Positions 25,146 through 41,439 of a DNA stretch of 41,439 nt are shown piece after piece. Each line of letters begins with the position of its first letter. Position 1 is the stretch's first letter. The translations under genes and the position numbers were made by a program. The DNA comes from Acidimicrobiia bacterium. Its GTDB lineage: Bacteria; Actinomycetota; Acidimicrobiia; Spongiisociales; Spongiisociaceae. The stretch is from contig WTGI01000011.1 of NCBI GenBank assembly GCA_011523635.1, forward strand, positions 1-41,439, read 5' to 3'. A model generated the notes under the pieces. The model worked only from the letters and a program-made list of their open reading frames with translations, made no database searches and was not told the origin of the DNA.

Positions 25146-25187
25146 AGACAACCAGTAACTAACAATTAGTAACTATCAACTAGTAAC
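25146..25187 (-). repeat. Degenerate 7-bp tandem repeat tract
   Basis: Read on the minus strand, starting in the last codons of the alcohol dehydrogenase gene, six consecutive 7-mers follow the pattern GTTACTA, GTTGATA, GTTACTA, ATTGTTA, GTTACTG, GTTGTCT. The tract is strikingly AT-rich against its surroundings and resembles the short tandem heptamer repeats known from cyanobacteria. The first unit supplies the TAG stop. No such tract follows the two related genes upstream. Confidence 0.6.
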
Positions 25188-26283
25188 GGACCAAGCTCCG
25201 GATGCCTTCTCCGATTTCGAACTGGTGGAGAGCGCCGTTGATGTCCTCCTGGTCGATCTCGGCGGTGATCAGTTCGTCCAGCAGGAGTTTGCCGGCCTTG
25301 TACAGTTCGACATAGCGGGGTATGTCGAAGGCGGGCCGCAGCGAGCCGTAGTAGCAGCCGAGGAGCTTGCGCTCGTCGATCATCAGGCCCATGTCGACGG
25401 TGAGTTCGGACCCGTACGGTGCGACTCCCACCTGCACGGCCGTGCCTCCCCGGCAGAGCGAACGGACCGCAGTGGCCACGGTCTCGGGATGGCCGATCGC
25501 CTCCACCGCCAGGTCCACCCCGAGTCCGCCGGTCATGGCGATGAGGGTCTCGGCCGTCTCCACCTCGGAGGCATTCACCGTGTGGGTGGCGCCGAAGCGT
25601 CGGGCGGCTTCGAGCTTGTGCTCGGCGATGTCGACGCCGATTATCTTCCCGGCGCCCCGCAGCCGCGCTCCCTGGATGGCGTTGAGTCCGATGCCTCCGC
25701 AGCCGATGACGGCGACGCTGTCTCCGAGCTGCACGTTGCCCGTGTTGACGACAGCTCCGACCCCGGTGGAGACGGCGCAGCCGATCACGGCGAGGGGTCC
25801 GAGGGGAACACCGTCCGGGACCGGGATCGCCGCTGAGGCCGGCACCGTCACGTCCCGGGAGTAGGTGGACAACATCATGCTGTGGCTGATCGTCTCGCCG
25901 TTGCTGTCCGTGAACCGGCTGGTCCAGTCTTGCAAGCGCCCCTCCCAGGAGGGTCCGATCGCGGTCATGCAGAGCGCCGGGCGTCCCGTGGCGCAGTACC
26001 TGCACTTGCCGCACGGCGCAACCCAGGAAAGGACCACCCGGTCGCCGACCCGGACGGTGGAGGGGCCGGGTCCGACGGCGGCCACGATGCCGGCTCCCTC
26101 GTGGCCGCAGATGAGCGGCAGGTTGACGGGAATGTGGCCCTGCACCAGATGCAGATCGCTGTGGCACACGCCACTCGACACCATCCGGACGAGAACCTCG
26201 TTGGCCTTGGGTTCCTCCAGTTCGACCTCTTCGACGACCAGCGGAGTGTTGAACTCGCGCAGCACCGCTGCTCTTGTCCTCAT
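25180..26283 (-). CDS. Zinc-dependent alcohol dehydrogenase (MDR family), copy 1
   Basis: 367-residue medium-chain dehydrogenase that should oxidise an alcohol with NAD(P)+. Catalytic zinc ligands are in GVCHSDLH, CGHEGAG and VIGCAVSTGVG. The structural zinc lobe has all four Cys (PCGKCRYCATGRPALC). The Rossmann motif is GCGGIGLNAI, followed by an acidic residue in IIGVDIAEHK, favouring NAD. It overlaps the first copy of a 1,075-bp tandem duplication, which covers its first two-thirds. The close paralogue at 27481-28584 differs at scattered residues. The stop codon lies in the heptamer tract. It is upstream of the phosphotriesterase-family and dimethylformamidase-like genes on the same strand. 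Confidence 0.92.
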   Translation of the reverse strand: MRTRAAVLREFNTPLVVEEVELEEPKANEVLVRMVSSGVCHSDLHLVQGHIPVNLPLICGHEGAGIVAAVGPGPSTVRVGDRVVLSWVAPCGKCRYCATGRPALCMTAIGPSWEGRLQDWTSRFTDSNGETISHSMMLSTYSRDVTVPASAAIPVPDGVPLGPLAVIGCAVSTGVGAVVNTGNVQLGDSVAVIGCGGIGLNAIQGARLRGAGKIIGVDIAEHKLEAARRFGATHTVNASEVETAETLIAMTGGLGVDLAVEAIGHPETVATAVRSLCRGGTAVQVGVAPYGSELTVDMGLMIDERKLLGCYYGSLRPAFDIPRYVELYKAGKLLLDELITAEIDQEDINGALHQFEIGEGIRSLVRY

Positions 26284-26566
26284 CCAGATCCTCCTTGCAC
26301 GGAGCGCTGCCTGGGGCGCACGTCACGCCGCTGCCGTCGCATATCACGCCGCCGCTCACCCGACAGACCACCTCGGTAGCCTCCCGCAAGCGTAGGCGCG
26401 GCCCGCTAGTAGCGGACCAGGCTTCTTATGCCCGCTCCACGGTCGAACTGGTCGAGCGCGTCGTTGATGCCGTCCTGGTCGATCTCGGCGGTGATCAGTT
26501 CGTCTACCAGGAGCTTGCCGGCCTGGTACAACTCGACATAGCGGGGGATGTCGAAGGCGGGCCGCA
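25492..26566. repeat. 1,075-bp tandem duplication, unit 1
   Basis: Bases 25492-26568 match 26567-27643 with an offset of 1,075 and no mismatch seen by eye. The unit contains the 5' two-thirds of one alcohol dehydrogenase gene, its 122-bp upstream spacer and the 3' end (about 160 bp) of the neighbouring alcohol dehydrogenase gene. Confidence 0.85.
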
Positions 26567-27358
26567 GCCGATCGCCTCCACCGCCAGGTCCACCCCGAGT
26601 CCGCCGGTCATGGCGATGAGGGTCTCGGCCGTCTCCACCTCGGAGGCATTCACCGTGTGGGTGGCGCCGAAGCGTCGGGCGGCTTCGAGCTTGTGCTCGG
26701 CGATGTCGACGCCGATTATCTTCCCGGCGCCCCGCAGCCGCGCTCCCTGGATGGCGTTGAGTCCGATGCCTCCGCAGCCGATGACGGCGACGCTGTCTCC
26801 GAGCTGCACGTTGCCCGTGTTGACGACAGCTCCGACCCCGGTGGAGACGGCGCAGCCGATCACGGCGAGGGGTCCGAGGGGAACACCGTCCGGGACCGGG
26901 ATCGCCGCTGAGGCCGGCACCGTCACGTCCCGGGAGTAGGTGGACAACATCATGCTGTGGCTGATCGTCTCGCCGTTGCTGTCCGTGAACCGGCTGGTCC
27001 AGTCTTGCAAGCGCCCCTCCCAGGAGGGTCCGATCGCGGTCATGCAGAGCGCCGGGCGTCCCGTGGCGCAGTACCTGCACTTGCCGCACGGCGCAACCCA
27101 GGAAAGGACCACCCGGTCGCCGACCCGGACGGTGGAGGGGCCGGGTCCGACGGCGGCCACGATGCCGGCTCCCTCGTGGCCGCAGATGAGCGGCAGGTTG
27201 ACGGGAATGTGGCCCTGCACCAGATGCAGATCGCTGTGGCACACGCCACTCGACACCATCCGGACGAGAACCTCGTTGGCCTTGGGTTCCTCCAGTTCGA
27301 CCTCTTCGACGACCAGCGGAGTGTTGAACTCGCGCAGCACCGCTGCTCTTGTCCTCAT
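26406..27358 (-). pseudogene. Chimeric, frameshifted alcohol dehydrogenase
   Basis: From ATG 27358 the frame is identical to copy 1 for about 264 residues, ending GVDLAVEAIG at 26567. There it joins the 3' end of the copy-2 gene (LRPAFDIPRYVELY to LVRY), but one base out of register, so translation runs into CGPPSTSP and stops at 26504. About 100 residues of the C-terminal catalytic/coenzyme domain are lost, and the product should not fold. The two joined points are not homologous positions and share only a few bases, so this is the by-product of a tandem duplication, not allelic gene conversion. It retains the same upstream spacer as copy 1 and could still be transcribed. Confidence 0.85.
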
Positions 27359-27643
27359 CCAGATCCTCCTTGCACGGAGCGCTGCCTGGGGCGCACGTCA
27401 CGCCGCTGCCGTCGCATATCACGCCGCCGCTCACCCGACAGACCACCTCGGTAGCCTCCCGCAAGCGTAGGCGCGGCCCGCTAGTAGCGGACCAGGCTTC
27501 TTATGCCCGCTCCACGGTCGAACTGGTCGAGCGCGTCGTTGATGCCGTCCTGGTCGATCTCGGCGGTGATCAGTTCGTCTACCAGGAGCTTGCCGGCCTG
27601 GTACAACTCGACATAGCGGGGGATGTCGAAGGCGGGCCGCAGC
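26567..27643. repeat. 1,075-bp tandem duplication, unit 2
   Basis: Second unit of the direct repeat. Identity with unit 1 continues 2 bp past the period (to 27643), then the sequence carries on into the intact copy-2 alcohol dehydrogenase. The complete identity implies a very recent event or an assembly artefact. Confidence 0.85.
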
Positions 27644-28584
27644 GAGCCGTAGTAGCACCCGAGGAGCTTGCGCTCGTCGAGCAGCAGGGTCATGTCGACG
27701 GAGACCTCGGTCCCGTATGGCGCTATCCCGACCTGCACGGCCATGCCCCCCCGGCGAAGCGAACGGACCGCGGTGGCCACGGTCTCGGGATGGCCGATCG
27801 CCTCCACCGCCAGGTCCACCCCGAGTCCGCCGGTCATGGCGATGAGCGTTTCCGAGGTCTCCACCTCCGAAGCGTTCACCGTATGGGTGGCGCCGAAGCG
27901 TCGGGCCGCCTCGAGCTTTTCCTCGCTGATGTCGACTCCGATGATCTTCCCGGCGCCCCGCAGCCGCGCTCCCTGGATGGCATTGAGTCCGACACCCCCG
28001 CAGCCGATGACGGCGACGCTGTCGCCGAGTTGCACGTTGCCGGTGTTGACGACAGCTCCGATCCCGGTGGAGACGGCGCAGCCGATCACGGCGAGGGGCT
28101 CGAGCGGAACATCGTCCGGAACCCGGATCGCGGCCGAAGCCGGCACGGTCGCCTCTCGGGAGAAAGTAGACAGCATCAGGTGATGGCTGATGGTTGTCCC
28201 GTCGGGGGCTGTGAAGCGGCTCGTTCCGTCGTGGAGATGGCCCTCGTAGGAGGGTCCGATGGCGGTCATGCACAGGGCCGGGTTTCCTGTGGCGCAATAG
28301 TTGCAGTTGCCGCACGGCGACACCCAGGAGAGGACCACCCGGTCTCCGACCTGTACGGTGGACGGTCCGGGCCCGACCGCGGTCACGATCCCGGCGCCCT
28401 CGTGGCCGCAAATGATCGGCAGGTTCACGGGGATATGGCCCTGCACGATGTGCAGATCGCTGTGGCATACCCCGCTCGACACCATCTTCACCGACACCTC
28501 GTTGGCCTTGGGTGCCTGCAACTCCACTTCTTGGACAACCAACGGGGTGTTGAACTCGTGAAGTACCGCCGCCTTCGTTCTCAT
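27481..28584 (-). CDS. Zinc-dependent alcohol dehydrogenase (MDR family), copy 2
   Basis: 367-residue paralogue of copy 1, same length and collinear. Catalytic zinc sites GVCHSDLH, GHEGAG and GCAVSTGIG are present, as are the structural zinc Cys in SPCGNCNYCATGNPALC. The NAD-binding motif is GCGGVGLNAI with Asp in IIGVDISEEK. Differences from copy 1 are spread over the whole length, mostly conservative, so the two diverged well before the 1,075-bp duplication. A short divergent region (28585-28669) separates it from the LLM oxidoreductase gene. It is the promoter-proximal gene of the 28584-to-20185 cluster. Confidence 0.92.
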   Translation of the reverse strand: MRTKAAVLHEFNTPLVVQEVELQAPKANEVSVKMVSSGVCHSDLHIVQGHIPVNLPIICGHEGAGIVTAVGPGPSTVQVGDRVVLSWVSPCGNCNYCATGNPALCMTAIGPSYEGHLHDGTSRFTAPDGTTISHHLMLSTFSREATVPASAAIRVPDDVPLEPLAVIGCAVSTGIGAVVNTGNVQLGDSVAVIGCGGVGLNAIQGARLRGAGKIIGVDISEEKLEAARRFGATHTVNASEVETSETLIAMTGGLGVDLAVEAIGHPETVATAVRSLRRGGMAVQVGIAPYGTEVSVDMTLLLDERKLLGCYYGSLRPAFDIPRYVELYQAGKLLVDELITAEIDQDGINDALDQFDRGAGIRSLVRY

Positions 28585-28669: not shown

Positions 28670-29566
28670 ATGAAGTACGGGATAGGCGCCGTCAACTCGC
28701 TTCTCATTGACGATCCCGGCGCCATGCGGGATGTCGCCCAGGCCGCCGAAGACCTCGGCTACGACTTCCTGACCCTGATCGACCATGTCCTGCTCGCCTA
28801 TCCGGCCGCGGACGGGACGCCCCGGGCGCACTACCCGGCCCGGACCCCCTACCACGACATCCTGGTTGCTCTCGGGTACCTGGGAGGCGTGACCAGCCGT
28901 ATCGCGCTGCGCTCCGCAGTGGTGATCATGCCTCAGCGGGGTCCCGCGGTCGTCGCCAAGCAGGCAGCCGCCGCGGACAGCCTTTCCGGAGGGCGTCTCG
29001 AGCTGGGCCTCGGGATCGGATGGCACCTGGAGGAATACGACGCCCTGGAGGTTCCCTTCACGGAGCGGGGCCGGCGGATGGACGAGGGAATCGAGTTGAT
29101 GAAGCTGCTCTGGACCCAGGACCGGGTCGACTTCGACGGGCACTTCTACCGGGTTGACGGCATGGGGATGGAGCCGAAGCCGGTGACCCGGCCCCACCCG
29201 CCGCTGTGGTTCGGCGGCACGACCCCACCGGTCTTTCGGCGGGTCGTGGATCACGGGGTGGGCTGGTTGTCGAGGCCTGTCCAGACGGTGGAGGAGATCG
29301 GCGCATGCTGGAAGGAGATCGGGCGTCTCGCCGCCGAGGCAGGTCGGGACGCGGACGCACTCCGTCTCCACGTCTCGGTGGGTCTGGGTCCGGAGGAGAC
29401 CACCGAAAAGATCATCGGAAACACTCGCAGGATGATCTCCGTGGGGGCGACGGATGTCTCGTTCTTCACCAGCTACATGCCCGGCATCGAGTCCGCCGGT
29501 GATCACATCGCTCAGCTGGAGCGGGCCATGTCCGACGTGGTGCCGGCGGTGGATGCCGGCCCGTAG
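28670..29566 (+). CDS. LLM class oxidoreductase, probably F420-dependent
   Basis: 298-residue luciferase-like TIM-barrel oxidoreductase. It starts MKYGIGAVNSLL; further segments are LTLIDHVL, TSRIALRSAVVIMPQRGP, the GRLELGLGIGWHLEEY flavin/F420 contact region and KPVTRPHPPLWFGGTTP, all typical of the actinobacterial F420-dependent group. ATG 28670 has GGAGG 9 nt upstream; ATG 28664, with a 3-nt spacing, is possible. It is divergent from the alcohol dehydrogenase and overlaps the convergent HyuB gene by 55 nt. A role in reducing or oxidising a pathway intermediate is likely but unspecified. Confidence 0.87.
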   Translation: MKYGIGAVNSLLIDDPGAMRDVAQAAEDLGYDFLTLIDHVLLAYPAADGTPRAHYPARTPYHDILVALGYLGGVTSRIALRSAVVIMPQRGPAVVAKQAAAADSLSGGRLELGLGIGWHLEEYDALEVPFTERGRRMDEGIELMKLLWTQDRVDFDGHFYRVDGMGMEPKPVTRPHPPLWFGGTTPPVFRRVVDHGVGWLSRPVQTVEEIGACWKEIGRLAAEAGRDADALRLHVSVGLGPEETTEKIIGNTRRMISVGATDVSFFTSYMPGIESAGDHIAQLERAMSDVVPAVDAGP

Positions 29567-31143
29567 CCGCCTCCTCCACTGGTCTCCACCCTGATGATCG
29601 ATCCGGGCTCCAGGGAAGAAGACGTCTTCGAGGCTGTCGACACGACCTGCCCATCGGGCCCGAGGATCGTCACCCTGGTGGGGCGGGCGTCATCGCCCCC
29701 GCCCACCCCCTCCGGCCGGTGCTCCTCGACGGCCTGCTCGCAGTAGAGGGTGGCGATCTGGGGGACGTCGAGGATCTGGTACTCGCGACAGATTCCCAGG
29801 CCGCCGGACAGCAGGCCCTCTCCGGACGAGTCCTCGACGAGTTCGCTCTTGAGTATTCGGACCGAGTACTCGGTCTCGGCCACCTCGACCGGTAGCAGGG
29901 CCACGTTGGACATGTAGGTGTCCACCCCGTCGATTCCCCTTCCGTGGTCGTGCGCGCCCGTCCCGCCGCCCACCACCTCCATGAGCACCGCGGTCTCGCC
30001 GGTCTGGGGAGATTTGCTGCCGATCTGCAAGCCGAAGAAGGTGACGCTGCTGCTGGCCACCGCCCGGGCCGGCCACAGATCGGAGGCCGTCCGGATGAGG
30101 GTGTCCGCGACCACCTGGCAGGTGTTGTGCCGCACGGAGACTGCCGCTGGGAACCGCGGATTCAGGATGGTTCCCGACGGGCAGGTGATGGTGACAGGCG
30201 CCAGCAAGCCGTCGTTGGAGGGGATGTCCAACCCCACCATGGTGCGGACCAGGTAGGCCACGCATGCCCGGGTGCTGGCCCAGGGCACGTTGAGCGCGCC
30301 GTCCACCTGCGGGGATGACCCGGTGAAATCCACGTGCAGCGCCCGGCCGGTCTTGGCGAGCCGTACGCGGATCGGTACGGGGGCGCTGCCGAGCCCGTCA
30401 TCGTCGAGGTGGCCGGTGCGTACGGCTTCCCCGTCGTCGAGGTCGGCCAGGGCGGCGGCGGTCTGGCGGGCGGTCCGGTCGAGGATCTCGGTGAACGCGG
30501 CGCCGACCTGGTCGGGTCCGTACCGTTCCATCGTGCGCAACAGCGCCCTCTCTCCTGTGAGACAGGAGGCGTGCTGGGCCCGCAGGTCGGCGACCAACCC
30601 CCGGGGTTCCCGCACGTTGGCGGCGATCATCCGGACCAGGTCCCGGTTCTCCTCGCCCTCCTGGTAGAGCTTGATCGGCGGGAAGATCAGACCCTCGGCG
30701 AACAATTCCCGGTGGTGGGGCGCCAGGGTGCCGGGAGTAGGTCCGCCCAGGTCGACGTGGTGGGCCGTAGATCCGGCCCACCCGACCACCCGGCCGTCCG
30801 AGAAGACCGGCATGACCAGGTTCAGGTCCGGCGTGTGCATGCATCCCATGTAGGGGTGGTTCAGCAGGAAGGCGTCGCCCGGCTGCACGTCGCCGGGGTC
30901 CGGATACTCCGCTCGGCAGGTCTGGACGGCCAGCGACATCGCTCCCAGCTGGGCGGGAATCCGCTCGTCCTGAGCCACCGATTCGCCTCCGGGCGCGAAG
31001 ATCGCGCAGCTGAAGTCCTCCATCTCCCTGATGATGGGGCTGTGGCTGGAACGCTTGAGGATCATCGCCATCTCGCGGGCGGCGTGGCGGAGCCGGCTGT
31101 GTATCAACTCGTAGGTGACCGGATCGAGGCCACTCCTAGGCAT
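29512..31143 (-). CDS. hyuB: Hydantoinase B/oxoprolinase family subunit
   Basis: 543-residue HyuB-type subunit. With HyuA it forms the ATP-dependent hydantoinase/5-oxoprolinase/acetone-carboxylase-like complex that opens five-membered cyclic amides. Diagnostic stretches are DPVTYELIHSRLRHAAREM, EMEDFSCAIFAPGGE, GDAFLLNHPYMG, AGSTAHHVDLGG and, near the C-terminus, ETSGGGGYG. It overlaps the HyuA stop by 8 nt. Its last 18 codons lie inside the convergent LLM oxidoreductase gene, an unusually long overlap. Which ring it opens is not readable; the TenA-like and AtzA-like genes upstream point to N-heterocycle breakdown (inference). Confidence 0.92.
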   Translation of the reverse strand: MPRSGLDPVTYELIHSRLRHAAREMAMILKRSSHSPIIREMEDFSCAIFAPGGESVAQDERIPAQLGAMSLAVQTCRAEYPDPGDVQPGDAFLLNHPYMGCMHTPDLNLVMPVFSDGRVVGWAGSTAHHVDLGGPTPGTLAPHHRELFAEGLIFPPIKLYQEGEENRDLVRMIAANVREPRGLVADLRAQHASCLTGERALLRTMERYGPDQVGAAFTEILDRTARQTAAALADLDDGEAVRTGHLDDDGLGSAPVPIRVRLAKTGRALHVDFTGSSPQVDGALNVPWASTRACVAYLVRTMVGLDIPSNDGLLAPVTITCPSGTILNPRFPAAVSVRHNTCQVVADTLIRTASDLWPARAVASSSVTFFGLQIGSKSPQTGETAVLMEVVGGGTGAHDHGRGIDGVDTYMSNVALLPVEVAETEYSVRILKSELVEDSSGEGLLSGGLGICREYQILDVPQIATLYCEQAVEEHRPEGVGGGDDARPTRVTILGPDGQVVSTASKTSSSLEPGSIIRVETSGGGGYGPASTAGTTSDMARSS

Positions 31144-33169
31144 CGGCCACCTCCCGGATGATCAGGTTCCGGTACCGGTCCGCGCAGGCGGACTGCCCGT
31201 CGAGCACGACGGTCGTGGCGTCCGGTTGCTCGACTACGCACGGCCCCACTAGCAGGGCGCCCGGACCCAGGTCATCGCGCCGGTAGACGGGAACCTCGAT
31301 GGGACGACGCATCTCGCGCAGCTTCATGACGCGCTTCGAGACCGGGGTGGGACTGCGGAAGGATTCGCCGTCGGGCGGAGCGGCGCCGACGGCGAGCGAG
31401 CCGAAGGCGGACATGCGCAGGGTCACGGCGACCACGGGCTCATCCGATGTATGACCGTAGAGGGAGTCATGGATGTCGCGGAACTCGCTGCACACCCCTT
31501 CGGGGCTGAGCCTGGAGGTCGCGACCGGGACGTTCAACTCGAAACCCTGCCCCCGGTAGCGGCAGTCGATAGAAGGCTCCAGCCGGACTTGACGGTCGTC
31601 GATGCCGTCCGCCCGGAGCCGGGCGCGAAGCGATTCCCCGGTCGTGTCGAACCAGCCGGCGATGTCGCCGATGGAGGACTTGTCGACGGTGGTCAGCACC
31701 GTGGCCGACTCGTCGATCCTGAGGTCCGTCGCCAGCAGGCCCGCCGCGGAGAATAGGCCGGGGTGCCGCGGGATGACCGCCTCCGGCATGGATAGGTCCC
31801 TGATCAGCTGGCCGGCATGGAGCGGCCCCGCCCCGCCGAATGCCACCAGGGCGTACCGCCTGGGATCCTCCCCGCGATCTATCGAAACCCTCCGGATGGC
31901 GGCCTCGAGATGGGCATTGGCGATGGCCAGCACGCCTTCGGCGGTGGCCTGGGGGTCCAGGTCCAGACCGGCGCCCACTCCGGCGATCGCATCGAGGGCC
32001 GCATCCCGGTCCAGGGTGAGGCTGCCGCCCAGAGCGGTCAACTCGCCGAGGGTGCCGGCCACCAGGTGGGCGTCGGTGAGGGTTGCGTTCCGACCCCCGC
32101 GCCCGTACGCGGCGGGTCCGGGATCCGCTCCCGCGCTCGCCGGACCGACCTTGAGGGCGCCCGACCGGTCGACCTCGACGATGCTCCCGCCTCCCGCGCC
32201 CGCCGAGTGGATGTCGAGGGACGGGGATAGTATCGGGTGCGACTCGATGTGCCGCATCGGGGACACGGAAGCCAGCCCGTTCCGGATCAGGCAGACATCC
32301 GCCGACGTGCCACCGATATCGAGGGACAGGAGGTGGCTCCGCCCGGTGGCCGCTCCCAGGGCCATCGCTCCCGCGACGCCGGCCGCGGGCCCGGAGACCA
32401 GCAGCTTGTGAGCCTCGGCCTCAGCCCTGGCCGCCGGAACGCCTCCGCCGTTGGACTGCATCACGAGGAAGGTTCCGGGTATTCCGAGGTCCCGTATCCC
32501 ATCCTCGGCTCTCTGCAGGTAGTCCCGGACCACCGGACGGAGCCCGGCGTTGACAGCCGTCGTGACGGTCCGGGGATACTCCCGGAACTCGTTAGCCACC
32601 TCGGAGGATCGGGATACCGCCAGGCCCGGGCATGCGGCCTCGAGGGCGTCGGCGAGCGTACGTTCGTGGCTGTCGTCCAGGTAGCTGAACAGGAAGGAGA
32701 TGGCGACCGCCTCCGGGTCCCGCGTCTCGACCTCCTTGACGGCTCGGGCGGTCTCCGATGCCGTCAGCGCCCGGACGGTGCCGGTGGCGGTGACACGTTC
32801 GTCCACCTCGATCCGGTCACCGCGCGGAATGAACTCCCTCGGGCGGCTCTGGCGCAGGTCGTACGCGTCGGGACGGGAGCCCGAGCGATACGTCAGTATG
32901 TCCCGGAAGCCCTTGGTCGTGAGGAGGACGACCCGGGCCAGCCTGTCGTTGATGACCGCGTTGGTGGCGATGGTGGTGCCATGGAACACCAGGGACACCT
33001 CCTCGAACGCCATCCCGCGACGGCCGAGGGCCGATAGGGCGTCGAGCAGGCCCAGCGCCGGATCGGCGGGGACGGTGGGCACCTTGGCGGTGAGCCGCTG
33101 CCCGATCCCGTCGTCTGCGACCACGTCGGTGAATGTGCCACCGATGTCGATGGCTACGGTCCATGTCAT
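31136..33169 (-). CDS. hyuA: Hydantoinase A/oxoprolinase family subunit
   Basis: 677-residue HyuA-type ATPase subunit of the actin-like ATPase fold. It starts VAIDIGGTFTDVV (phosphate-binding loop 1); then VFHGTTIATNAVI, the SLDIGGTSADVCLI second phosphate loop, SAGAGGGSI, GADPGPAAYGRGG and AFGGAGPLHA follow, all in family order and at normal length. It activates the cyclic amide by phosphorylation for opening by HyuB. It lies 10 nt after TenA, and its stop overlaps HyuB. No good ribosome site precedes ATG 33169, suggesting coupling to TenA translation. Confidence 0.93.
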   Translation of the reverse strand: MTWTVAIDIGGTFTDVVADDGIGQRLTAKVPTVPADPALGLLDALSALGRRGMAFEEVSLVFHGTTIATNAVINDRLARVVLLTTKGFRDILTYRSGSRPDAYDLRQSRPREFIPRGDRIEVDERVTATGTVRALTASETARAVKEVETRDPEAVAISFLFSYLDDSHERTLADALEAACPGLAVSRSSEVANEFREYPRTVTTAVNAGLRPVVRDYLQRAEDGIRDLGIPGTFLVMQSNGGGVPAARAEAEAHKLLVSGPAAGVAGAMALGAATGRSHLLSLDIGGTSADVCLIRNGLASVSPMRHIESHPILSPSLDIHSAGAGGGSIVEVDRSGALKVGPASAGADPGPAAYGRGGRNATLTDAHLVAGTLGELTALGGSLTLDRDAALDAIAGVGAGLDLDPQATAEGVLAIANAHLEAAIRRVSIDRGEDPRRYALVAFGGAGPLHAGQLIRDLSMPEAVIPRHPGLFSAAGLLATDLRIDESATVLTTVDKSSIGDIAGWFDTTGESLRARLRADGIDDRQVRLEPSIDCRYRGQGFELNVPVATSRLSPEGVCSEFRDIHDSLYGHTSDEPVVAVTLRMSAFGSLAVGAAPPDGESFRSPTPVSKRVMKLREMRRPIEVPVYRRDDLGPGALLVGPCVVEQPDATTVVLDGQSACADRYRNLIIREVADA

Positions 33170-33179
33170 CCGCGGGAAC

Positions 33180-33848
33180 TCAGACCGGCCAGGCCCTCTC
33201 GTTGTAGGCCATGTCCCAGAACATTCCCTCCAGGCGGCTGCTGGTGCGGAAGATGTCCTCGATCCTCGCCAGGTCCGAACTGCTCATGCCCTCGCAGAGT
33301 CGTTCGAGCTTGTCCTTGACCTCTTCGAGCGTGTCCCAGTACTCCTGCCCCCCGAAGAACTCGATCCAGGTGCGATAGACCTGGTGGTCCGGAGCGTCGG
33401 GAAGCCGTTCCTTGCCGATCTCCCCGTAGCTCCAGGCGCAGGGTGTCAGCGAGGCCATGATGTCGGCAGCTCGACCCTCGTAGGCCACGGTCAGCAGGTG
33501 GCGGGTGTAGGCCAGCGTGCCGGGGGCCATCACCACCTCCTCGGTCGCCCCCGGAACCATCTGGCGGACCTCGTCGAGCAGCTGGCGGTTCTTGGGTAGC
33601 TCGAAGTCGACGATGTTGCTCACGATGGCGGCGAAATCCCGCATGGTGTCCTCATCATCGGCCTTCGCCACACCGAGAGCCATCGCCCTGGCCAACTCCC
33701 TCAGGAAGACTATGTTCTGACCGATGTAGAAGGCGAACTTCCGCTCCGGAAGGGTGCCGGAGGCCAGTTCATCCACGAACGGATGGTTGTGCAGCTCGTG
33801 CCAGATATCCAGGCAGCTGTCCCTGAGGTTTTCGCAAACACTGCTCAT
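33180..33848 (-). CDS. tenA: TenA/thiaminase-II family protein with substituted pyrimidine pocket
   Basis: 222 residues, all-helical TenA/THI-4 fold. Known TenA hydrolyses aminopyrimidine (or thiamine) to hydroxymethylpyrimidine in thiamine salvage. The nucleophile Cys137 (LTPCAWSYGEIG), Glu207 (LEGMFWDMAY) and Tyr114 are conserved against B. subtilis TenA Cys135, Glu205 and Tyr112. The substrate-recognition Asp44 and Tyr47 are replaced by Asn45 and Phe48 (YIGQNIVFL). A different amine or pyrimidine substrate is therefore likely. ATG 33848 overlaps the amidohydrolase stop (ATGA) and has GGAGG 9 nt upstream. The operon is amidohydrolase, TenA, HyuA, HyuB; no thiamine genes are nearby. Confidence 0.85.
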   Translation of the reverse strand: MSSVCENLRDSCLDIWHELHNHPFVDELASGTLPERKFAFYIGQNIVFLRELARAMALGVAKADDEDTMRDFAAIVSNIVDFELPKNRQLLDEVRQMVPGATEEVVMAPGTLAYTRHLLTVAYEGRAADIMASLTPCAWSYGEIGKERLPDAPDHQVYRTWIEFFGGQEYWDTLEEVKDKLERLCEGMSSSDLARIEDIFRTSSRLEGMFWDMAYNERAWPV

Positions 33849-35443
33849 CGACCGGTACCTCCTCCGACACGCCGGCCGCCGCCGAAGCCGGCAGGACCGG
33901 TCGTCGTGTTGTACTCGTATCCGAGGGCCATAGGCTCCTCCGCCCACGGGCGGTAGAAGTCGAACAGGTACGGCTCGACCTCGAACGCCAGCTCGGCCCA
34001 TCGGGCCCAAGGCTCCTCCAGATCGAACAGCCCCCTCGCTATCGCCTCGTTGTACTCGTCCCGGATCTGCTGCTCGTTCAGCGCGGTGATCTCCCCGTTG
34101 TCGAGGACCACCTTGCCGGCGACGAGTACCGTCTCGATGTCCGTGCCGTCGGCCCGGTCCAGGATCACGTCGAGCACCGGGCTCACGTAGAACCGCGCCG
34201 GTCGTTCGAACACCCGCTTGCGGTCGAGGATGAGCAGGTCGGCGTCCTTACCCACCGCCAGGCTGCCGATGCGGTCCTCGGCGCGGGCCGCCCGCGCCCC
34301 GTACGTGGCGGCGGATCGCAGGAGCGCCTCGGAGTTGAGCCGGCCGTACTCCGGCTCCGGCCCAAGAGGTAGGCGCTGGAGGTAGGCACCTAGGCGAACC
34401 TCCTGGAACATGTCGTCACGCTCGGAGAAGGAGATGGCATCGGTACCGAACGCCAGCCCTCCACCGGCGTCGAGGATGTCGCGCACGCGGCACACCCCGG
34501 TGCTCAGCCGGAGGTTCGAGCCGGGGTTGCTCGCCGCCACGGCACCGGTGTCGGCCAGGATCTCGATGTCACGGTCGGTGGCCCACACGAAGTGCGAGAG
34601 CGACACGTCCGGCCCGAGGAGGCCGATGTCAGCCAGCCGTTGCATGGCCGTGACTCCGAAGCGCCGGATGTTGTACTGCATCTCGGACCGGGTCTCGAGG
34701 CAGTGCGTCATGATCCCGGTGTCGTACTCGGTGGCGATGGCCCGGCACCTGCGGTAGAGGTCGTCGGTCACCGCGGGGGTCCAGTCCGGCGCCAGCAGGA
34801 CGCGGAGCCGGTCGTCCCGGCGGTCCCAGGTCGCGGCCGCATCCTCGTAGGCGGCTATGACGTCGTCGCTGGGCAGGGCGTAACCCATGGGGGAGTTGCG
34901 GACCTCCTCGGCCAGCTCTTCGGGCAGTCGGGCCAGGAAGTCGTCGTTCGCCTCGTGGACGTAGAGGTTCTCATCGCGCAGTGTGATCCCGAGAGCGGTG
35001 CGCATTCCCAGGTCCTCGTACGCCTGCAGGGCGTTGTCCATGCCGAAGTTCTTCGGACCGGGTCGGCCGTAGAAGGCATCCACCGTGGTCGTGATTCCTC
35101 CCCGGACCGCGGTCATGAGCGTGACGAGGATCGCCTTGTACATGATTTCCTCGTCCATCGGCTTGAAGACCGGATGGACGTAGATGTTGGCCCTCTCGAA
35201 GAGCATCTCCCAGAGTCCCGGGCCCAGCGCCGACTCGGAGTGGTAGTGGGAGGCCACGAAGCCGGGCATGACGAAGTGGTCCTGCGAACCGAGGACGCGG
35301 TCGAAGGGCCCCTTGGTCTCGAGTTCGGCCCTCGGTCCGGACTCCACGATCTTCTTGCCCTCGACGATCAAAGCGCCATCGGTGATGAACGCTTCGTCGG
35401 CAAGCGTGACCACCGGGTTGCCCACGATGAGATATCGCGACAT
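33845..35443 (-). CDS. Amidohydrolase, cytosine deaminase/AtzA-TrzA-like
   Basis: 532-residue amidohydrolase whose relatives deaminate or dechlorinate N-heterocycles (cytosine, guanine, triazines). A beta-sandwich from both ends (MSRYLIVGNPVVTLAD; LLILDRKRVFERP) surrounds a TIM barrel with metal motif SHYHSE, TCHLE-type His in GIMTHCLET, His in LSHFVWATD and Asp in FGTDAISF. AAAGGA lies about 9 nt before ATG 35443; the 29-residue upstream extension is not family-like. The C-terminus FDFYRPWAEEPMALGYEYN is shared with the partial gene at the right edge, and the N-terminus with the remnant at 2330. It leads the TenA-HyuA-HyuB operon. Confidence 0.9.
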   Translation of the reverse strand: MSRYLIVGNPVVTLADEAFITDGALIVEGKKIVESGPRAELETKGPFDRVLGSQDHFVMPGFVASHYHSESALGPGLWEMLFERANIYVHPVFKPMDEEIMYKAILVTLMTAVRGGITTTVDAFYGRPGPKNFGMDNALQAYEDLGMRTALGITLRDENLYVHEANDDFLARLPEELAEEVRNSPMGYALPSDDVIAAYEDAAATWDRRDDRLRVLLAPDWTPAVTDDLYRRCRAIATEYDTGIMTHCLETRSEMQYNIRRFGVTAMQRLADIGLLGPDVSLSHFVWATDRDIEILADTGAVAASNPGSNLRLSTGVCRVRDILDAGGGLAFGTDAISFSERDDMFQEVRLGAYLQRLPLGPEPEYGRLNSEALLRSAATYGARAARAEDRIGSLAVGKDADLLILDRKRVFERPARFYVSPVLDVILDRADGTDIETVLVAGKVVLDNGEITALNEQQIRDEYNEAIARGLFDLEEPWARWAELAFEVEPYLFDFYRPWAEEPMALGYEYNTTTGPAGFGGGRRVGGGTGR

Positions 35444-36749: not shown

Positions 36750-37447
36750 CACCGGCCGCTTGTTGCTGGTTATGGGGTGTGGTGGTCTAGGCGGTAGACG
36801 CGGCGGGTGTTTTCTCCGAGTATTTGGTCGATTTCGTGTTGGGGGATGCGGTAGCCCAATTGTTTGGCCCATTCGGGGAGCATGCGGAATTGGTCCACCC
36901 ATTGTTTGAGGGTGAGGGACACTTCGATTCCGGCCATGTCGGATCCGAAGAGGATGCGGTCCGCTCCGATGCGGTCTCTCATCCATACGATCTTGCGGGT
37001 TAGTTCGTCGGGGGAGATCCAGTGTTGCCATAGGCTCATGTCGAGGTGGACGTTGGTCTTGTAGATGGCTACCGATATGGCTTCGTGTGCCCAGGTCTCG
37101 TAGCGGGCGGAATGGCCCAAGATGAATCGGAGGTCGGGGAAGTCGGCGGCGGCGGAGTCGACGTATATGGGGTGCCCGTATTTTGATTTGTGCCGTCCTG
37201 CGGAGTGTCCTTGGTGGAGGAGTACGGGTAGGTCTCGTTCCAAGAGGAACCGGTAGAGGGGGTAGACGACGTCTTCGTCGTCGGGGTAGAAGCCGTTGGT
37301 GGGATATAGCTTGAGGCCGATGGCGCCCCATTGGTCTACTGCGGTGGTGAGGATTTCGAGGGCGTCGGGGCGTCGGGGGTCTACTCCGCAGAAGGTGTAG
37401 AGGCGTCCGGGGTGTCTTTTGGTGGCTTCGGCGCAGAGCCGGTTCTT
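36750..37447. repeat. 698-bp block identical to 40058-40755 (copy 1)
   Basis: Direct repeat, offset 3,308, no mismatch seen by eye. It covers the 3' two-thirds of the amidohydrolase gene and about 20 bp beyond its stop. Its codons favour A- and C-ending forms (CAA, GAA, GGA, GTA, CTA, CGA), unlike the G/C-ending codons of the same gene's 5' end and of the neighbours. Confidence 0.85.
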
Positions 37448-37735
37448 TTCCGCGATGGGGATGACGCCTTCTTCGCCCAGGCCGACGCCGTGGTCCATTG
37501 GCATCATCACCGACGCGTCGACTCCGGCCTCGTCCATACGAGCAACCGCCTTATCACCCGTGATGTCCGTGGCCTCCGCGACCCTGGCATGCAGGTAGGA
37601 GGGATCCGACTTCGGGGGCTCGTACCAGCGCACCTGCCGGGCCCACGACGCATCCATACCGGACCTCAGGTTGACAGGGTTCCAATCATCACCCCGGATG
37701 TGCATATGGCAATCCACCACGAGAGCCCCGCTCAT
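36770..37735 (-). CDS. Amidohydrolase family protein (amidohydro_2), twin of 40078-41037
   Basis: 321-residue amidohydrolase_2 protein. VVDCHMHIRGDDW gives HxH. Other family segments are GLKLYPTNGFYPDD, VLLHQGHSAG, FILGHSARYETW and ILFGSDMAGIE (final Asp). I start at ATG 37735, which overlaps the SDR stop as ATGA; ATG 37744 is a less likely alternative. From MDEAGVDAS onward the protein is identical to the 40078-41037 product; before that it is only similar. The C-terminal two-thirds uses a different codon style from the N-terminal third, so the gene looks like a mosaic. It follows the SDR in one operon. Confidence 0.87.
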   Translation of the reverse strand: MSGALVVDCHMHIRGDDWNPVNLRSGMDASWARQVRWYEPPKSDPSYLHARVAEATDITGDKAVARMDEAGVDASVMMPMDHGVGLGEEGVIPIAEKNRLCAEATKRHPGRLYTFCGVDPRRPDALEILTTAVDQWGAIGLKLYPTNGFYPDDEDVVYPLYRFLLERDLPVLLHQGHSAGRHKSKYGHPIYVDSAAADFPDLRFILGHSARYETWAHEAISVAIYKTNVHLDMSLWQHWISPDELTRKIVWMRDRIGADRILFGSDMAGIEVSLTLKQWVDQFRMLPEWAKQLGYRIPQHEIDQILGENTRRVYRLDHHTP

Positions 37736-38508
37736 GCTGTCCATCCGCCGTCGACGAGAAGGTTCTGCCCGGTCAGGTAGGAACTCATGCCGGATACCAG
37801 GAACAGCGCCGCGCCGACCATCTCCTCCGGCCGGGCGATGCGGCCCATGGGCGTCCGCTGGAGGATGGCCGACACGTTGTCCTCGACGGCGAGGTAGTCA
37901 CGGGTCATTTCGGTTCTCACCCAAGCAGGACTGATGCAGTTGAGCCGCACCTTGGGCGCCCAATGGTCGGCCAGCACGGCGCTCATGTGGATCATGGCCG
38001 CCTTGCTGGCGCTGTAGGCGACCTGGGCGCCGTCGCTCACCACGCCTGACAGCGAGGCGATGTTGACGATCGAGCCTCCATTCCCATCCAGCATGCGGCG
38101 ACCGACCTCCCTGGTCAGGAAGAAGGCGCCCCGGAGGTTCACGTCGAACAACGCATCCCATTCCGCGGGGCTGATCTCCAGCGCGGAGGAGCGGTTCGTG
38201 GCCCCGGCGGAGTTGACCAGGCTGTCCAGCCCGCCCTTCCACCGCCACGCCGCCGCTACCGCCGCCGCTGTGGCCTCCAGATCGGCGATGTCCGCAACGA
38301 GCGGGAGAAACTCGCCCCCTCCGGTGCGTATCTCGTCCCCGAGATCGTCAAGGGCGTCGGCGGAGCGGGCCAGGCCCACCACCGAGGCGCCGGCCGCGGC
38401 CAGACCGATGGCTATGGATCGCCCGATTCCCCTGCTGGCGCCGGCCACCAGCGAGGTGGTCCCCGCTTGATCGGGCCGCAGGGTCTCGAATTGCCCCCAA
38501 TCCGCCAC
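37732..38508 (-). CDS. Short-chain dehydrogenase/reductase
   Basis: 258-residue classical SDR, an NAD(P)-dependent alcohol/ketone oxidoreductase. The coenzyme motif is GASRGIG (23-29), with LVNSAG (98-102 region) and the catalytic triad Ser152, Tyr165 and Lys169 (YSASK). The C-terminal PEEMVGAALFLVSG and LLVDGGW are typical. It is coupled to the amidohydrolase at 36770 and divergent from the amidase gene, with 61 bp between the two starts that should hold both promoters. Confidence 0.92.
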   Translation of the reverse strand: MADWGQFETLRPDQAGTTSLVAGASRGIGRSIAIGLAAAGASVVGLARSADALDDLGDEIRTGGGEFLPLVADIADLEATAAAVAAAWRWKGGLDSLVNSAGATNRSSALEISPAEWDALFDVNLRGAFFLTREVGRRMLDGNGGSIVNIASLSGVVSDGAQVAYSASKAAMIHMSAVLADHWAPKVRLNCISPAWVRTEMTRDYLAVEDNVSAILQRTPMGRIARPEEMVGAALFLVSGMSSYLTGQNLLVDGGWTA

Positions 38509-40057: not shown

Positions 40058-40755
40058 CACCGGCCGCTTGTTGCTGGTTATGGGGTGTGGTGGTCTAGGC
40101 GGTAGACGCGGCGGGTGTTTTCTCCGAGTATTTGGTCGATTTCGTGTTGGGGGATGCGGTAGCCCAATTGTTTGGCCCATTCGGGGAGCATGCGGAATTG
40201 GTCCACCCATTGTTTGAGGGTGAGGGACACTTCGATTCCGGCCATGTCGGATCCGAAGAGGATGCGGTCCGCTCCGATGCGGTCTCTCATCCATACGATC
40301 TTGCGGGTTAGTTCGTCGGGGGAGATCCAGTGTTGCCATAGGCTCATGTCGAGGTGGACGTTGGTCTTGTAGATGGCTACCGATATGGCTTCGTGTGCCC
40401 AGGTCTCGTAGCGGGCGGAATGGCCCAAGATGAATCGGAGGTCGGGGAAGTCGGCGGCGGCGGAGTCGACGTATATGGGGTGCCCGTATTTTGATTTGTG
40501 CCGTCCTGCGGAGTGTCCTTGGTGGAGGAGTACGGGTAGGTCTCGTTCCAAGAGGAACCGGTAGAGGGGGTAGACGACGTCTTCGTCGTCGGGGTAGAAG
40601 CCGTTGGTGGGATATAGCTTGAGGCCGATGGCGCCCCATTGGTCTACTGCGGTGGTGAGGATTTCGAGGGCGTCGGGGCGTCGGGGGTCTACTCCGCAGA
40701 AGGTGTAGAGGCGTCCGGGGTGTCTTTTGGTGGCTTCGGCGCAGAGCCGGTTCTT
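40058..40755. repeat. 698-bp block identical to 36750-37447 (copy 2)
   Basis: Second copy of the direct repeat. Beyond 40755 the two genes remain similar with scattered, mainly synonymous changes for about 100 bp and then diverge. The left border lies just after the terminator hairpin. Confidence 0.85.
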
Positions 40756-41037
40756 CTCTGCGATGGGGATGACGCCTTCTTCGCCCAGTCCGACACCGTG
40801 GTCCATTGGCATCATCACCGACGCGTCCACCCCGGCCTCGTCCATACGAGCAACCGCCTTATCACCGTTGCCGTCGGCGGCGACGCTCCATGCCTCCGCG
40901 AAGTACTCGGGGTCGGACTTGGGCGGTTCGTACCAGCGCACCTGCCTCGCCCAGGACTCGGCCATGCCCGAGGACACGTTCATCGGGTTCCAATCGGGTT
41001 CCATGATGTGCATATGGCAATCCACCACCAAGGGCAT
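40078..41037 (-). CDS. Amidohydrolase family protein (amidohydro_2), twin of 36770-37735
   Basis: 319-residue amidohydrolase_2 protein. The N-terminus MPLVVDCHMHIMEPDW carries HxH; the rest is shared with the twin (VLLHQGHSAG, ILFGSDMAGIE). AGGAGAGGAG lies 5 nt before ATG 41037, which starts 2 nt after the upstream amidohydrolase stop, so the two are coupled. The N-terminal third differs from the twin (EYFAEAWSVAADGN against SYLHARVAEATDIT), while the remainder is identical. The same mosaic codon pattern is seen. Confidence 0.87.
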   Translation of the reverse strand: MPLVVDCHMHIMEPDWNPMNVSSGMAESWARQVRWYEPPKSDPEYFAEAWSVAADGNGDKAVARMDEAGVDASVMMPMDHGVGLGEEGVIPIAEKNRLCAEATKRHPGRLYTFCGVDPRRPDALEILTTAVDQWGAIGLKLYPTNGFYPDDEDVVYPLYRFLLERDLPVLLHQGHSAGRHKSKYGHPIYVDSAAADFPDLRFILGHSARYETWAHEAISVAIYKTNVHLDMSLWQHWISPDELTRKIVWMRDRIGADRILFGSDMAGIEVSLTLKQWVDQFRMLPEWAKQLGYRIPQHEIDQILGENTRRVYRLDHHTP

Positions 41038-41039
41038 GG

Positions 41040-41439
41040 TCACTCCTCTCCTGAACCGCTCCCCGTCAGGGGCGGATGCTTGGCGTTGTAAACGGCCGCC
41101 GGCTCCAGCGGTGTCCGGGCCCACGGGCGGTAGAAGTCGAGGACGTAGGGGTCCACCTCCCATCCCAGGCGTACCGACTCGGGGTCGGGGTCGCTTCCCA
41201 TGATGCGCGCAGCCGCTTCGGTGACGTAGTCCCGCACCTGGCTGTGCGGGATGCGGGTGAACTCGCCGTCGTCGAACACGATCTCTCCGGCGACCATGAC
41301 CGAGGCCACGTCGGCGGAGGAGGCTCGGTCGAGGATCACGTCCAGGGGCGGGGTGGACGCGTAGCGTTCCTCCGGCCAGAACAGGCGGTCGCGACTCAGT
41401 ACGGCCAAGTCGGCTTCCTTGCCCACGCCGAGCGAGCCG
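41040..41439 (-). CDS. Amidohydrolase, AtzA/TrzA-like, C-terminal part (5' end outside window)
   Basis: The last 132 or so residues of an amidohydrolase running off the right edge. GSLGVGKEADLAVLSRDRLF is the return to the beta-sandwich after the barrel, followed by PLDVILDRA, VMVAGEIVFDDGE and LDFYRPWARTP. It is collinear with the C-terminus of the intact 33845-35443 protein (SLAVGKDADLLILDRKRVF, FDFYRPWAEEP). No catalytic residues fall within the visible part. It pairs with the amidohydrolase_2 gene 2 nt downstream. Confidence 0.88.
   Translation of the reverse strand, partial: GSLGVGKEADLAVLSRDRLFWPEERYASTPPLDVILDRASSADVASVMVAGEIVFDDGEFTRIPHSQVRDYVTEAAARIMGSDPDPESVRLGWEVDPYVLDFYRPWARTPLEPAAVYNAKHPPLTGSGSGEE

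What the first reader, a model, noticed from the sequence alone, without database searches (positions are those of the whole stretch)
33180..33848. TenA-like protein with substituted pyrimidine-recognition residues in a hydantoinase operon
Cys137, Glu207 and Tyr114 match the TenA catalytic set, but Asp44 and Tyr47 of B. subtilis TenA are Asn45 and Phe48. The gene is coupled to a ring-deaminase-type amidohydrolase and HyuA/HyuB, not to thiamine genes. A TenA working on a different N-heterocycle or amine in catabolism is possible.
Basis: partly seen in the sequence, partly recalled or inferred. Interest (0 to 1): 0.5.

Follow-up and report, generated by a model that had tools for sequence, protein, structure and literature searches.

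The report
TenA enzyme repurposed for vitamin breakdown
A vitamin B1 salvage enzyme has a changed substrate pocket and sits, in several unrelated actinobacteria, in gene clusters that look built to digest a vitamin-like ring compound rather than to recycle the vitamin, which points to a degradation route that has not been described as far as we could find.

Summary
Phe48 is not diagnostic, since H. pylori TenA has Phe there naturally.

Asn44 TenAs are rare and keep different company from ordinary ones. In 18 loci against 119 Asp44 loci, the window's deaminase-type amidohydrolase family is near 8 v 0 and its Amidohydro_2 family near 7 v 0, while ThiE is near 0 v 30. No TPP riboswitch was found in 17 Asn loci; 9 of 9 and 4 of 8 Asp control loci hold one. 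The window's lineage lacks ThiC, ThiE and ThiN (0 of 7 genomes) but has thiamine pyrophosphokinase (7 of 7), so TenA cannot rebuild thiamine there. A same-genus genome carries, near this locus, homologues of 12 genes of a Nocardioides cluster (methylmalonyl-CoA mutase, deacylases, dehydrogenases).

Best reading: a catabolic TenA acting on a thiamine-type pyrimidine, possibly its deaminated 4-oxo form. The catabolic setting is well supported; the substrate is inferred. HyuA/HyuB is a local addition (2 of 18 loci).

The parts
33180..33848 (-). tenA, 222 aa, Asn44/Phe47/Phe163 type (residues Asn45, Phe48, Phe165)
33845..35443 (-). amh: Amidohydro_1 deaminase-type amidohydrolase, 532 aa from the ATG at 35443 (ORF open to 35530); HxH, H, E, H and D positions kept
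31136..33169 (-). hyuA: hydantoinase/oxoprolinase A, 677 aa (best NCBIfam caprolactamase alpha, 416 bits, under its cut-off of 1000)
29512..31143 (-). hyuB: hydantoinase/oxoprolinase B, 543 aa
35697..36698 (+). amh2a: Amidohydro_2 protein, 333 aa, HxH/H/H/D kept; homologues of 59-66% near Asn44 TenAs in Nocardioides and Herbiconiux, and a partial one in L050; decarboxylase-like (inferred)
36770..37744 (-). amh2b: Amidohydro_2 protein, 324 aa
40078..41037 (-). second amh2b copy, sharing an identical 300-nt stretch with the first
41040..41439 (-). C-terminal part of a second amh, cut by the contig end (whole in the same-genus locus L229:4176-5747)
37732..38508 (-). short-chain dehydrogenase, 258 aa
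38570..40012 (+). amidase, 480 aa
28646..29566 (+). LLM-class luciferase-like monooxygenase, 306 aa
27481..28584 (-). zinc alcohol dehydrogenase, 367 aa

Best explanation
The protein is a catalytically equipped TenA (thiaminase II fold, Cys/Glu/Tyr machinery) that works in breakdown, not salvage. It hydrolyses the CH2-N bond of a thiamine-type pyrimidine, so that the ring can be consumed for nitrogen and carbon. Proposed order: uptake; the partner amidohydrolase removes the ring amino group; the Asn44 TenA cuts the CH2-N bond of the resulting 4-oxo ring; dehydrogenases oxidise CH2OH to the acid; the Amidohydro_2 protein decarboxylates; HyuA/HyuB (here) or other hydrolases and monooxygenases (elsewhere) open the ring; deacylases, CoA transferase and methylmalonyl-CoA mutase feed the C4 skeleton to central metabolism. 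Shown: TenA fold and catalytic residues; Asn44/Phe163; a recurring catabolic neighbourhood; no salvage genes or TPP riboswitch close by; no route from pyrimidine to thiamine in this lineage. Inferred: the substrate class, the order of steps, and that Asp44->Asn marks a 4-oxo in place of a 4-amino ring (by analogy, recalled, with Asn in thymidylate synthase against Asp in dCMP hydroxymethylase). I hold the 4-oxo step at about 0.3.
For: Fold and catalysis: pLDDT 94.8; best match 2qcx, B. subtilis TenA, Z 31.1, rmsd 1.9, 218 aligned; Cys/Glu/Tyr kept. Pocket: Asp43/44 hydrogen-bonds the amino groups of HMP-P and D44A impairs TenA (PMC5623701 passages); Phe/Trp at the Tyr163 place defines a clade (20 rows, support 99/95, one change on the tree). 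Neighbours within 8 kb by tblastn, 18 Asn44 loci v 119 Asp44 loci: amh 8 v 0 and amh2a 7 v 0 with the window's proteins as the only queries; NMT1 binding protein 12 v 40; ThiE 0 v 30, ThiD 0 v 27, ThiM 0 v 23, ThiL 0 v 17. Of the 15 Asn44 loci outside the window's genome, 10 have amh, amh2a or both. TPP riboswitch: 0 of 17 Asn loci, 9 of 9 Firmicute Asp loci, 4 of 8 actinobacterial Asp loci. Genome content: ThiE, TMP-TENI, ThiC and ThiN 0 of 7 each, TPK 7 of 7 in the window's lineage; TMP-TENI over the cut-off in 4 of 10 other Asn44 genomes v 29 of 30 Asp44 genomes (all 30 checked as Asp44). Same-genus genome G005 carries, 7-26 kb from its tenA, homologues of 12 genes of the Nocardioides caldifontis cluster at 49-66%: amh, second amidohydrolase, glyoxalase/epimerase type, LLM, two M20, CoA transferase III, both mutase subunits, an unknown 320-aa protein, ALDH, ADH. 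The window's genome has four Asn44 tenA.
Against: No substrate is shown. In L050 the amh gene adjoins an Asp44 TenA, not the Asn44 one. The second amidohydrolase family is nearer the Asp44 than the Asn44 TenA in Herbiconiux and L062, and stands, 70% identical, about 3 kb from an Asp44 TenA in Cohnella (L082), so it is no marker of Asn44. L036 has none of the scored families, though it lies at a contig end; L087, L037, L039 and L153 lack amh and amh2a in view. A ThiD-type kinase is present in 7 of 7, so HMP could still be phosphorylated. NCBIfam names the protein thiaminase II. Loci within genera are not independent; the Asp44 loci are largely Firmicutes and actinobacteria, and 17 of the 30 control genomes are of one family. 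The mutase set lies beyond the end of the window's contig and was seen in a sister genome, not shown in G000. HyuA/HyuB is near only 2 of 18 loci.
Confidence: 0.55

Rival explanations
1. The cluster degrades an N-heterocycle unrelated to thiamine (a creatinine- or hydantoin-like ring, a lactam, or a xenobiotic), and TenA's fold has been recruited to cut an amine or quaternary nitrogen from it.
For: Among named solved structures the partner amidohydrolase is nearest to MTA/SAH and 8-oxoguanine deaminases; HyuA/HyuB are nearest to caprolactamase and acetophenone carboxylase models, both under cut-off; creatininase, Mo hydroxylase, acetamidase/formamidase-type and amidase genes lie in the same window.
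Against: NMT1/THI5-type binding proteins in 12 of 18 loci and Asp44 TenAs in 10 of 18 Asn44 loci point to a thiamine-like pyrimidine; HyuA/HyuB is not general (2 of 18).
Confidence: 0.25
2. Ordinary thiaminase II doing pyrimidine salvage; Asn44 and Phe163 are neutral drift and the neighbours are coincidental.
For: TIGR04306 equivalog score over cut-off; full catalytic set; ThiD-type kinase in 7 of 7 genomes; Phe47 natural in H. pylori.
Against: No ThiE or ThiN found in 7 of 7; no TPP riboswitch in 17 of 17 loci scanned; amh and amh2a recur, 0 of 119 in Asp44 loci.
Confidence: 0.12
3. House-cleaning: TenA and the amidohydrolase clear damaged or deaminated thiamine and antivitamins, without using them as food.
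For: The organism must import thiamine (0 of 7 ThiE and ThiC, 7 of 7 TPK), so an enzyme that spares thiamine but removes its damaged forms would be useful.
Against: Clusters with uptake systems, dehydrogenases, deacylases, CoA transferase and methylmalonyl-CoA mutase go further than clearance needs.
Confidence: 0.08

Closest known systems
TenA / thiaminase II of Bacillus subtilis (PDB 1yaf, 1yak, 2qcx)
   Same: Fold (Z 30-31), Cys135/Glu205/Tyr112/Tyr139 positions, 27-28% identity
   Different: Asp44->Asn, Tyr47->Phe, Tyr163->Phe; no TPP riboswitch in the window; no route to thiamine found in the lineage
Helicobacter pylori TenA HP1287 (2rd3; F47Y variant 3ibx)
   Different: Keeps Asp44 and Tyr163; its paper's title, seen in a reference list, already speaks of a different substrate specificity
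ThiXYZ-TenA-YlmB base-degraded thiamine salvage of Bacillus (recalled; YlmB in passages of PMC10470507)
   Same: NMT1/THI5 binding protein + ABC + Asp44 TenA + M20 deacylase recur in order in three Nocardioides clusters (L038, L044, L045)
   Different: The Asn44 clusters add deaminase-type amidohydrolases, Amidohydro_2, mutase or oxidases, and ThiE, D, M and L were not found near them
Riboflavin/lumichrome catabolic clusters of Microbacterium and Nocardioides (PMC12746152)
   Same: Precedent for vitamin digestion by multi-gene clusters in Nocardioides with hydrolytic breakdown of a pyrimidine ring (passages and Introduction)
   Different: Another vitamin; the word TenA does not occur in that text
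Thiamine oxidase EC 1.1.3.23 and the soil-bacterial oxidation of thiamine (recalled)
   Same: A FAD oxidase of the xylitol/alditol oxidase type with a GSGHS stretch lies beside a clade-member TenA in L046; a 71% homologue beside a TenA in N. caldifontis
   Different: Only a resemblance; the identity of this oxidase was not tested, and none was identified in the window

Membership tests
TenA / thiaminase II | Profile score over curated cut-off (TIGR04306, PF03070) | tested here: met
   165.8 bits v 130; 138 bits v 22
TenA / thiaminase II | Heme-oxygenase-like fold nearest to TenA | tested here: met
   Z 31.1 to 2qcx; the first 13 rows are all TenA, THI-4 or THI20 entries
TenA / thiaminase II | Catalytic Cys135, Glu205, Tyr112 | tested here: met
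   Cys137, Glu207, Tyr114
TenA / thiaminase II | Asp44 that contacts the amino groups of the pyrimidine | tested here: not met
   Asn45; role of Asp from PMC5623701 passages
TenA / thiaminase II | Tyr163 in the pyrimidine pocket (role recalled) | tested here: not met
   Phe165; Phe/Trp in 20 of 20 rows of the clade
TenA / thiaminase II | Hydrolysis of aminopyrimidine or thiamine | not testable with these tools
   needs the purified enzyme
Thiamine pyrimidine salvage gene | TPP riboswitch or thi genes close by | tested here: not met
   no TPP match at gathering threshold in the window; ThiE/D/M/L 0 of 18 Asn44 loci, the window included
Thiamine pyrimidine salvage gene | Genome can join the pyrimidine to the thiazole (ThiE or ThiN) | tested here: not met
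   0 of 7 genomes for ThiE, TMP-TENI and ThiN, controls positive; the genomes are incomplete drafts
Amidohydro_1 ring deaminase (amh) | HxH, H, E, H and D positions | tested here: met
   kept in 10 of 10 aligned
Amidohydro_1 ring deaminase (amh) | Removal of an amino group from a ring | not testable with these tools
   best profile 5'-deoxyadenosine deaminase, 210 bits, under its cut-off of 522
Amidohydro_2 decarboxylase (amh2a) | HxH, H, H, D | tested here: met
   kept in 6 of 6 aligned; decarboxylation itself not testable
Hydantoinase/oxoprolinase HyuA-HyuB | Both subunits with Hydant_A_N, Hydantoinase_A, Hydantoinase_B domains | tested here: met
   no NCBIfam equivalog over cut-off

The most novel reading that the evidence does not exclude
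These clusters are an undescribed bacterial pathway for eating vitamin B1 (or its breakdown products), in which TenA paralogues have been tuned by an Asp/Asn switch to the 4-amino and the deaminated 4-oxo forms of the pyrimidine, the Asn-type enzymes taking the product of a deaminase.
Probability: 0.27. Interest if true: 0.8.

Novelty: new variant of a known kind. Interest (0 to 1): 0.6.

Why it matters
TenA is commonly annotated as a thiamine salvage enzyme. Here is a clade whose pocket residues, neighbours and host genomes argue against salvage, so automatic annotation (TIGR04306) probably misleads for it. If the clusters digest thiamine-type pyrimidines, they would supply genes for a vitamin B1 degradation route, matter for B1 supply in microbial communities, and give a testable rule (Asp or Asn at position 44) for reading TenA substrate from sequence. 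Several carriers are named isolates (Nocardioides soli, N. caldifontis, N. mangrovi, Herbiconiux oxytropis), so the question can be put to the bench at once.

Tried and rejected
Phe48 as a marker: rejected, because Phe occurs with Asp44 in H. pylori TenA and in 17 of 170 surveyed TenAs (DFYCYE). HyuA/HyuB as the defining partner: rejected, near 2 of 18 Asn44 loci. For this I lowered the 4-oxo step from 0.35 to 0.3 and the novel case from 0.3 to 0.27. One origin of Asn44: all Asn rows as one clade is rejected (p-AU 0.0066), but that group leaves out three Asp members nested in the clade; with them added (24 rows) one clade is not rejected (p-AU 0.069). So one gain with later losses stays open, and I do not claim convergence.

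Plasmid search: TenA relatives in 124 records; the 40 listed are at 30.8-37.1% identity, none was opened and their position 44 was not read. Amidohydrolase relatives: the 25 listed of 568 records reach at most 31.4%; the two opened, L212 and L213, had no tenA annotated within about 7 kb. Survey of the family of Nocardioides LHD-245: 3 of 198 genomes at E 1e-35, two of them known already; the third, G520, encodes a TenA 35% like the window's with none of the reference families but a weak ABC match in view, and its position 44 was not read.

Literature: 10 searches listed no paper whose title or abstract start describes TenA in such a cluster; the library lacks most subscription papers, so this is weak. 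Passages were read in PMC12815266, PMC5623701, PMC10470507 and PMC12746152, and the Introduction of the last; other papers were seen in listings only. Jenkins 2008 is not held.

What the counts leave out. One search used 137 loci (L034, L036-L111, L152-L211) and five stretches of the window's lineage; L001-L033, L035 and L122-L151 (the window's genome, near relatives, or short pieces) were not in it. Its 170 rows hold some genes twice (L034 and L112 are the same DNA). In the neighbour counts, L112, L113 and L034 (relatives of the window's own loci) and L152 (Asp44 member of the window's clade, in the same genome as L153) were dropped, and L204, whose only TenA lacks the Cys, fell out; L082 was missed and put back. 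The Asn rows of L112 and L113 were left out of the tree. Families other than amh, amh2a, HyuA and HyuB were chosen because they occur in Asn44 loci, so their zeros are partly circular; the four thi families were each sought with one query. In one search, before Asp44 TenAs lying inside Asn44 loci were set apart, amh was 7 of 19 v 6 of 133 and amh2a 7 of 19 v 8 of 133. rests on a home-made gene caller; one search does not, except for the TenA positions.

Full report
WHAT IS THERE. The stretch 33180-33848 carries, on the minus strand, a 222-aa TenA, the second gene of a tightly packed operon amh-tenA-hyuA-hyuB (35443 down to 29512; overlaps of 4 and 8 bases and a gap of 10). Pfam agrees on all four. 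An AlphaFold model made from 13 window and locus sequences has mean pLDDT 94.8 and matches B. subtilis TenA at Z 31.1, rmsd 1.9, over 218 residues. The window is the whole of contig C40 of a 3.15-Mb draft genome in 91 contigs. The nearest titled record, 97% identical in TenA, is an Acidimicrobiia metagenome bin (L032); a sponge host is my guess from bin names and was not tested.

THE RESIDUES. Cys137, Glu207, Tyr114 and Tyr141 are kept; Asn45 replaces Asp44, Phe48 replaces Tyr47, and Phe165 replaces Tyr163. PMC5623701 (passages only) says that this Asp hydrogen-bonds the amino groups of HMP-P, that D44A impairs B. subtilis TenA, that Y47F impairs it too, but that Phe is the natural residue there in P. 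furiosus and H. pylori. So Phe48 alone is not special. The part played by Tyr163 is from memory. In the seven solved chains whose alignments were printed (2rd3, 3ibx, 1tyh, 1to9, 1yaf, 2qzc, 2gm7) position 44 is Asp. Among 170 TenA rows from 137 loci plus five stretches of the window's lineage, Asn44 occurs in 25 (a few genes are counted twice): the window type with Phe/Trp163, and a set of paralogues in the window's own lineage with Tyr163. On a tree of 81 rows (21 Asn44 rows, 10 Asp44 rows from L152 and from loci with Asn44, a random 48 other Asp44 TenAs, two references; the three trait columns left out), Phe/Trp163 arises once and unites 20 rows (99/95), 17 Asn44 and 3 Asp44; Asn44 needs four changes. 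The gene is under purifying selection (dN/dS 0.07-0.13).

THE COMPANY IT KEEPS. One search found TenA of this kind (at 1e-15) in 7 of 119 related genomes: 5 of 10 of the genus and 2 of 5 others of the family. It is an accessory trait, but in these 7 of 7 it has hyuA on one side and amh on the other. The window's genome has four Asn44 tenA. In five of the six relatives three or four tenA lie on one contig, within 21 to 46 kb. Two further copies sit beside their own amidohydrolase and uptake system: on C30, Opp-type ABC + amh2b + tenA + amh (56% to the window's); on C43, tenA + second-family amidohydrolase + ABC + NMT1 binding protein.

Recurring partners: NMT1/THI5 binding protein with ABC genes, a second (Asp44) TenA, amh or a second amidohydrolase family, amh2a, NtaA/DmoA-type monooxygenase, GMC or alditol-oxidase-type FAD oxidase, aldehyde dehydrogenase, M20 deacylase, methylmalonyl-CoA mutase and CoA transferase III. 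A TauE-type exporter stands beside it in L037 and L039, a rhodanese in L087; both could handle thiazole sulphur, but that is a guess. Counts within 8 kb by tblastn, 18 Asn44 loci against 119 Asp44 loci: amh 8 v 0, amh2a 7 v 0, HyuA and HyuB 2 v 0, second amidohydrolase 7 v 1, NMT1 12 v 40, ThiE 0 v 30, ThiD 0 v 27, ThiM 0 v 23, ThiL 0 v 17. At 30% identity amh stays at 8 v 0 and amh2a goes to 7 v 1 (118 Asp44 loci). Three of the 18 are from the window's genome, and loci of one genus are not independent. The amh, amh2a and Hyu queries were the window's own proteins; the other families were picked from Asn44 or (thi genes) Asp44 loci, and the zeros of the former are partly circular.

The strongest link between lineages came late. 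In the same-genus genome G005, the DNA past the equivalent of the window's right end carries amh2b-amh again and then a set homologous to the Nocardioides caldifontis cluster: amh 53%, second amidohydrolase 64%, glyoxalase/epimerase-type 54%, LLM 57%, M20 56%, CoA transferase III 58%, mutase large 66% and small 58%, an unknown 320-aa protein 64%, M20 64%, ALDH 52%, ADH 49%, all 7-26 kb from its tenA. N. caldifontis has these between about 598 and 622 kb of one contig, with clade TenAs at 600 and 619 kb, an Asp44 TenA at 604 kb and a further TenA at 627 kb. The window's contig stops short of this set; whether G000 holds it was not searched.

NOT SALVAGE. TPP riboswitches: none in 17 of 17 Asn44 loci scanned (7, 10; L153 was not scanned), against 9 of 9 Firmicute Asp44 loci and 4 of 8 actinobacterial ones. 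In seven genomes of the window's lineage ThiE, the wider TMP-TENI family, ThiN and ThiC were not found (0 of 7 each) while thiamine pyrophosphokinase is present (7 of 7) and so is a ThiD-type kinase (7 of 7). Such cells must import thiamine and cannot use TenA's product to make it. In ten other Asn44 genomes TMP-TENI is over the cut-off in 4; in 30 Asp44 actinobacterial genomes in 29 (17 of the 30 are of one family).

MECHANISM. I think the enzyme cuts the CH2-N bond of a thiamine-type pyrimidine in a degradation route. amh keeps the HxH/H/E/H/D positions of ring deaminases. Removing the 4-amino group turns that ring edge from donor to acceptor; Asn for Asp is the matching change in the pocket (recalled analogy: thymidylate synthase against dCMP hydroxymethylase). 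Decarboxylation by amh2a has a recalled precedent in iso-orotate decarboxylase. C4, C5 with its CH2, and C6 of the thiamine pyrimidine form a methylmalonate skeleton, which would explain the mutase. These chemical steps are inference. Against a strict pairing of deaminase with Asn44: in L050 amh adjoins an Asp44 TenA; the second amidohydrolase is closer to the Asp44 TenA in Herbiconiux and L062 and stands near an Asp44 TenA, with no Asn44 one seen in that locus, in Cohnella (L082). The second family may simply belong to the catabolic route at large.

KNOWN OR NEW. By profile and fold it is TenA; two features of the salvage enzyme's pocket and both tested features of a salvage gene are not met, so I would not file it as a thiamine salvage enzyme. 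The nearest functional precedent is the riboflavin/lumichrome catabolic clusters of Microbacterium and Nocardioides (PMC12746152, passages and Introduction). Ten literature searches (named under Tried and rejected) listed no account of this TenA context, in a library that lacks most subscription papers.

Noticed in passing
window 25180-28584: Three alcohol dehydrogenase copies in tandem; a 300-nt stretch at 25492 is identical to one at 26567 and 92% like one at 27793, the middle copy being short (278 aa). Gene conversion or an assembly fault; the equivalent stretch of G005 shows two (L120).
   Followed up: partly
window 36750-37049 and 40058-40357: Identical 300-nt stretches in the two amh2b genes, which differ elsewhere (37601-37720 v 40909-41028 is 78%): recent gene conversion or duplication.
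   Followed up: partly
window 1-24972: Mo hydroxylase of the xanthine dehydrogenase type (cut by the contig start), two enolase-superfamily genes, creatininase, M20, acetamidase/formamidase-type, DMFA2-type, phosphotriesterase-type and two more Amidohydro_2 genes: the window reads as a catabolic island.
   Followed up: partly
L046:14959-16185 (the same gene as L226:1399-2625) and L223:12366-13592: FAD oxidase of the xylitol/alditol oxidase type, with a GSGHS stretch in L046 (covalent-His type, recalled), beside a window-clade TenA with Asp44/Phe163 in L046; candidate for a thiamine oxidase.
   Followed up: partly
L082:11411-12727: Cohnella (Firmicute) locus with the second amidohydrolase at 70%, an NMT1-type match at 30% and an Asp44 TenA: the catabolic grouping may reach beyond actinobacteria.
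   Followed up: partly
one search set: Eleven TenA rows have Leu, Val, Ala or Ile at the catalytic Cys place and Trp at the Tyr163 place; their context was not examined.
   Followed up: no
L229:16823-17782: A 320-aa protein without a Pfam match, 64% identical to L223:3984-4979 in Nocardioides caldifontis, kept near the mutase genes in both.
   Followed up: no
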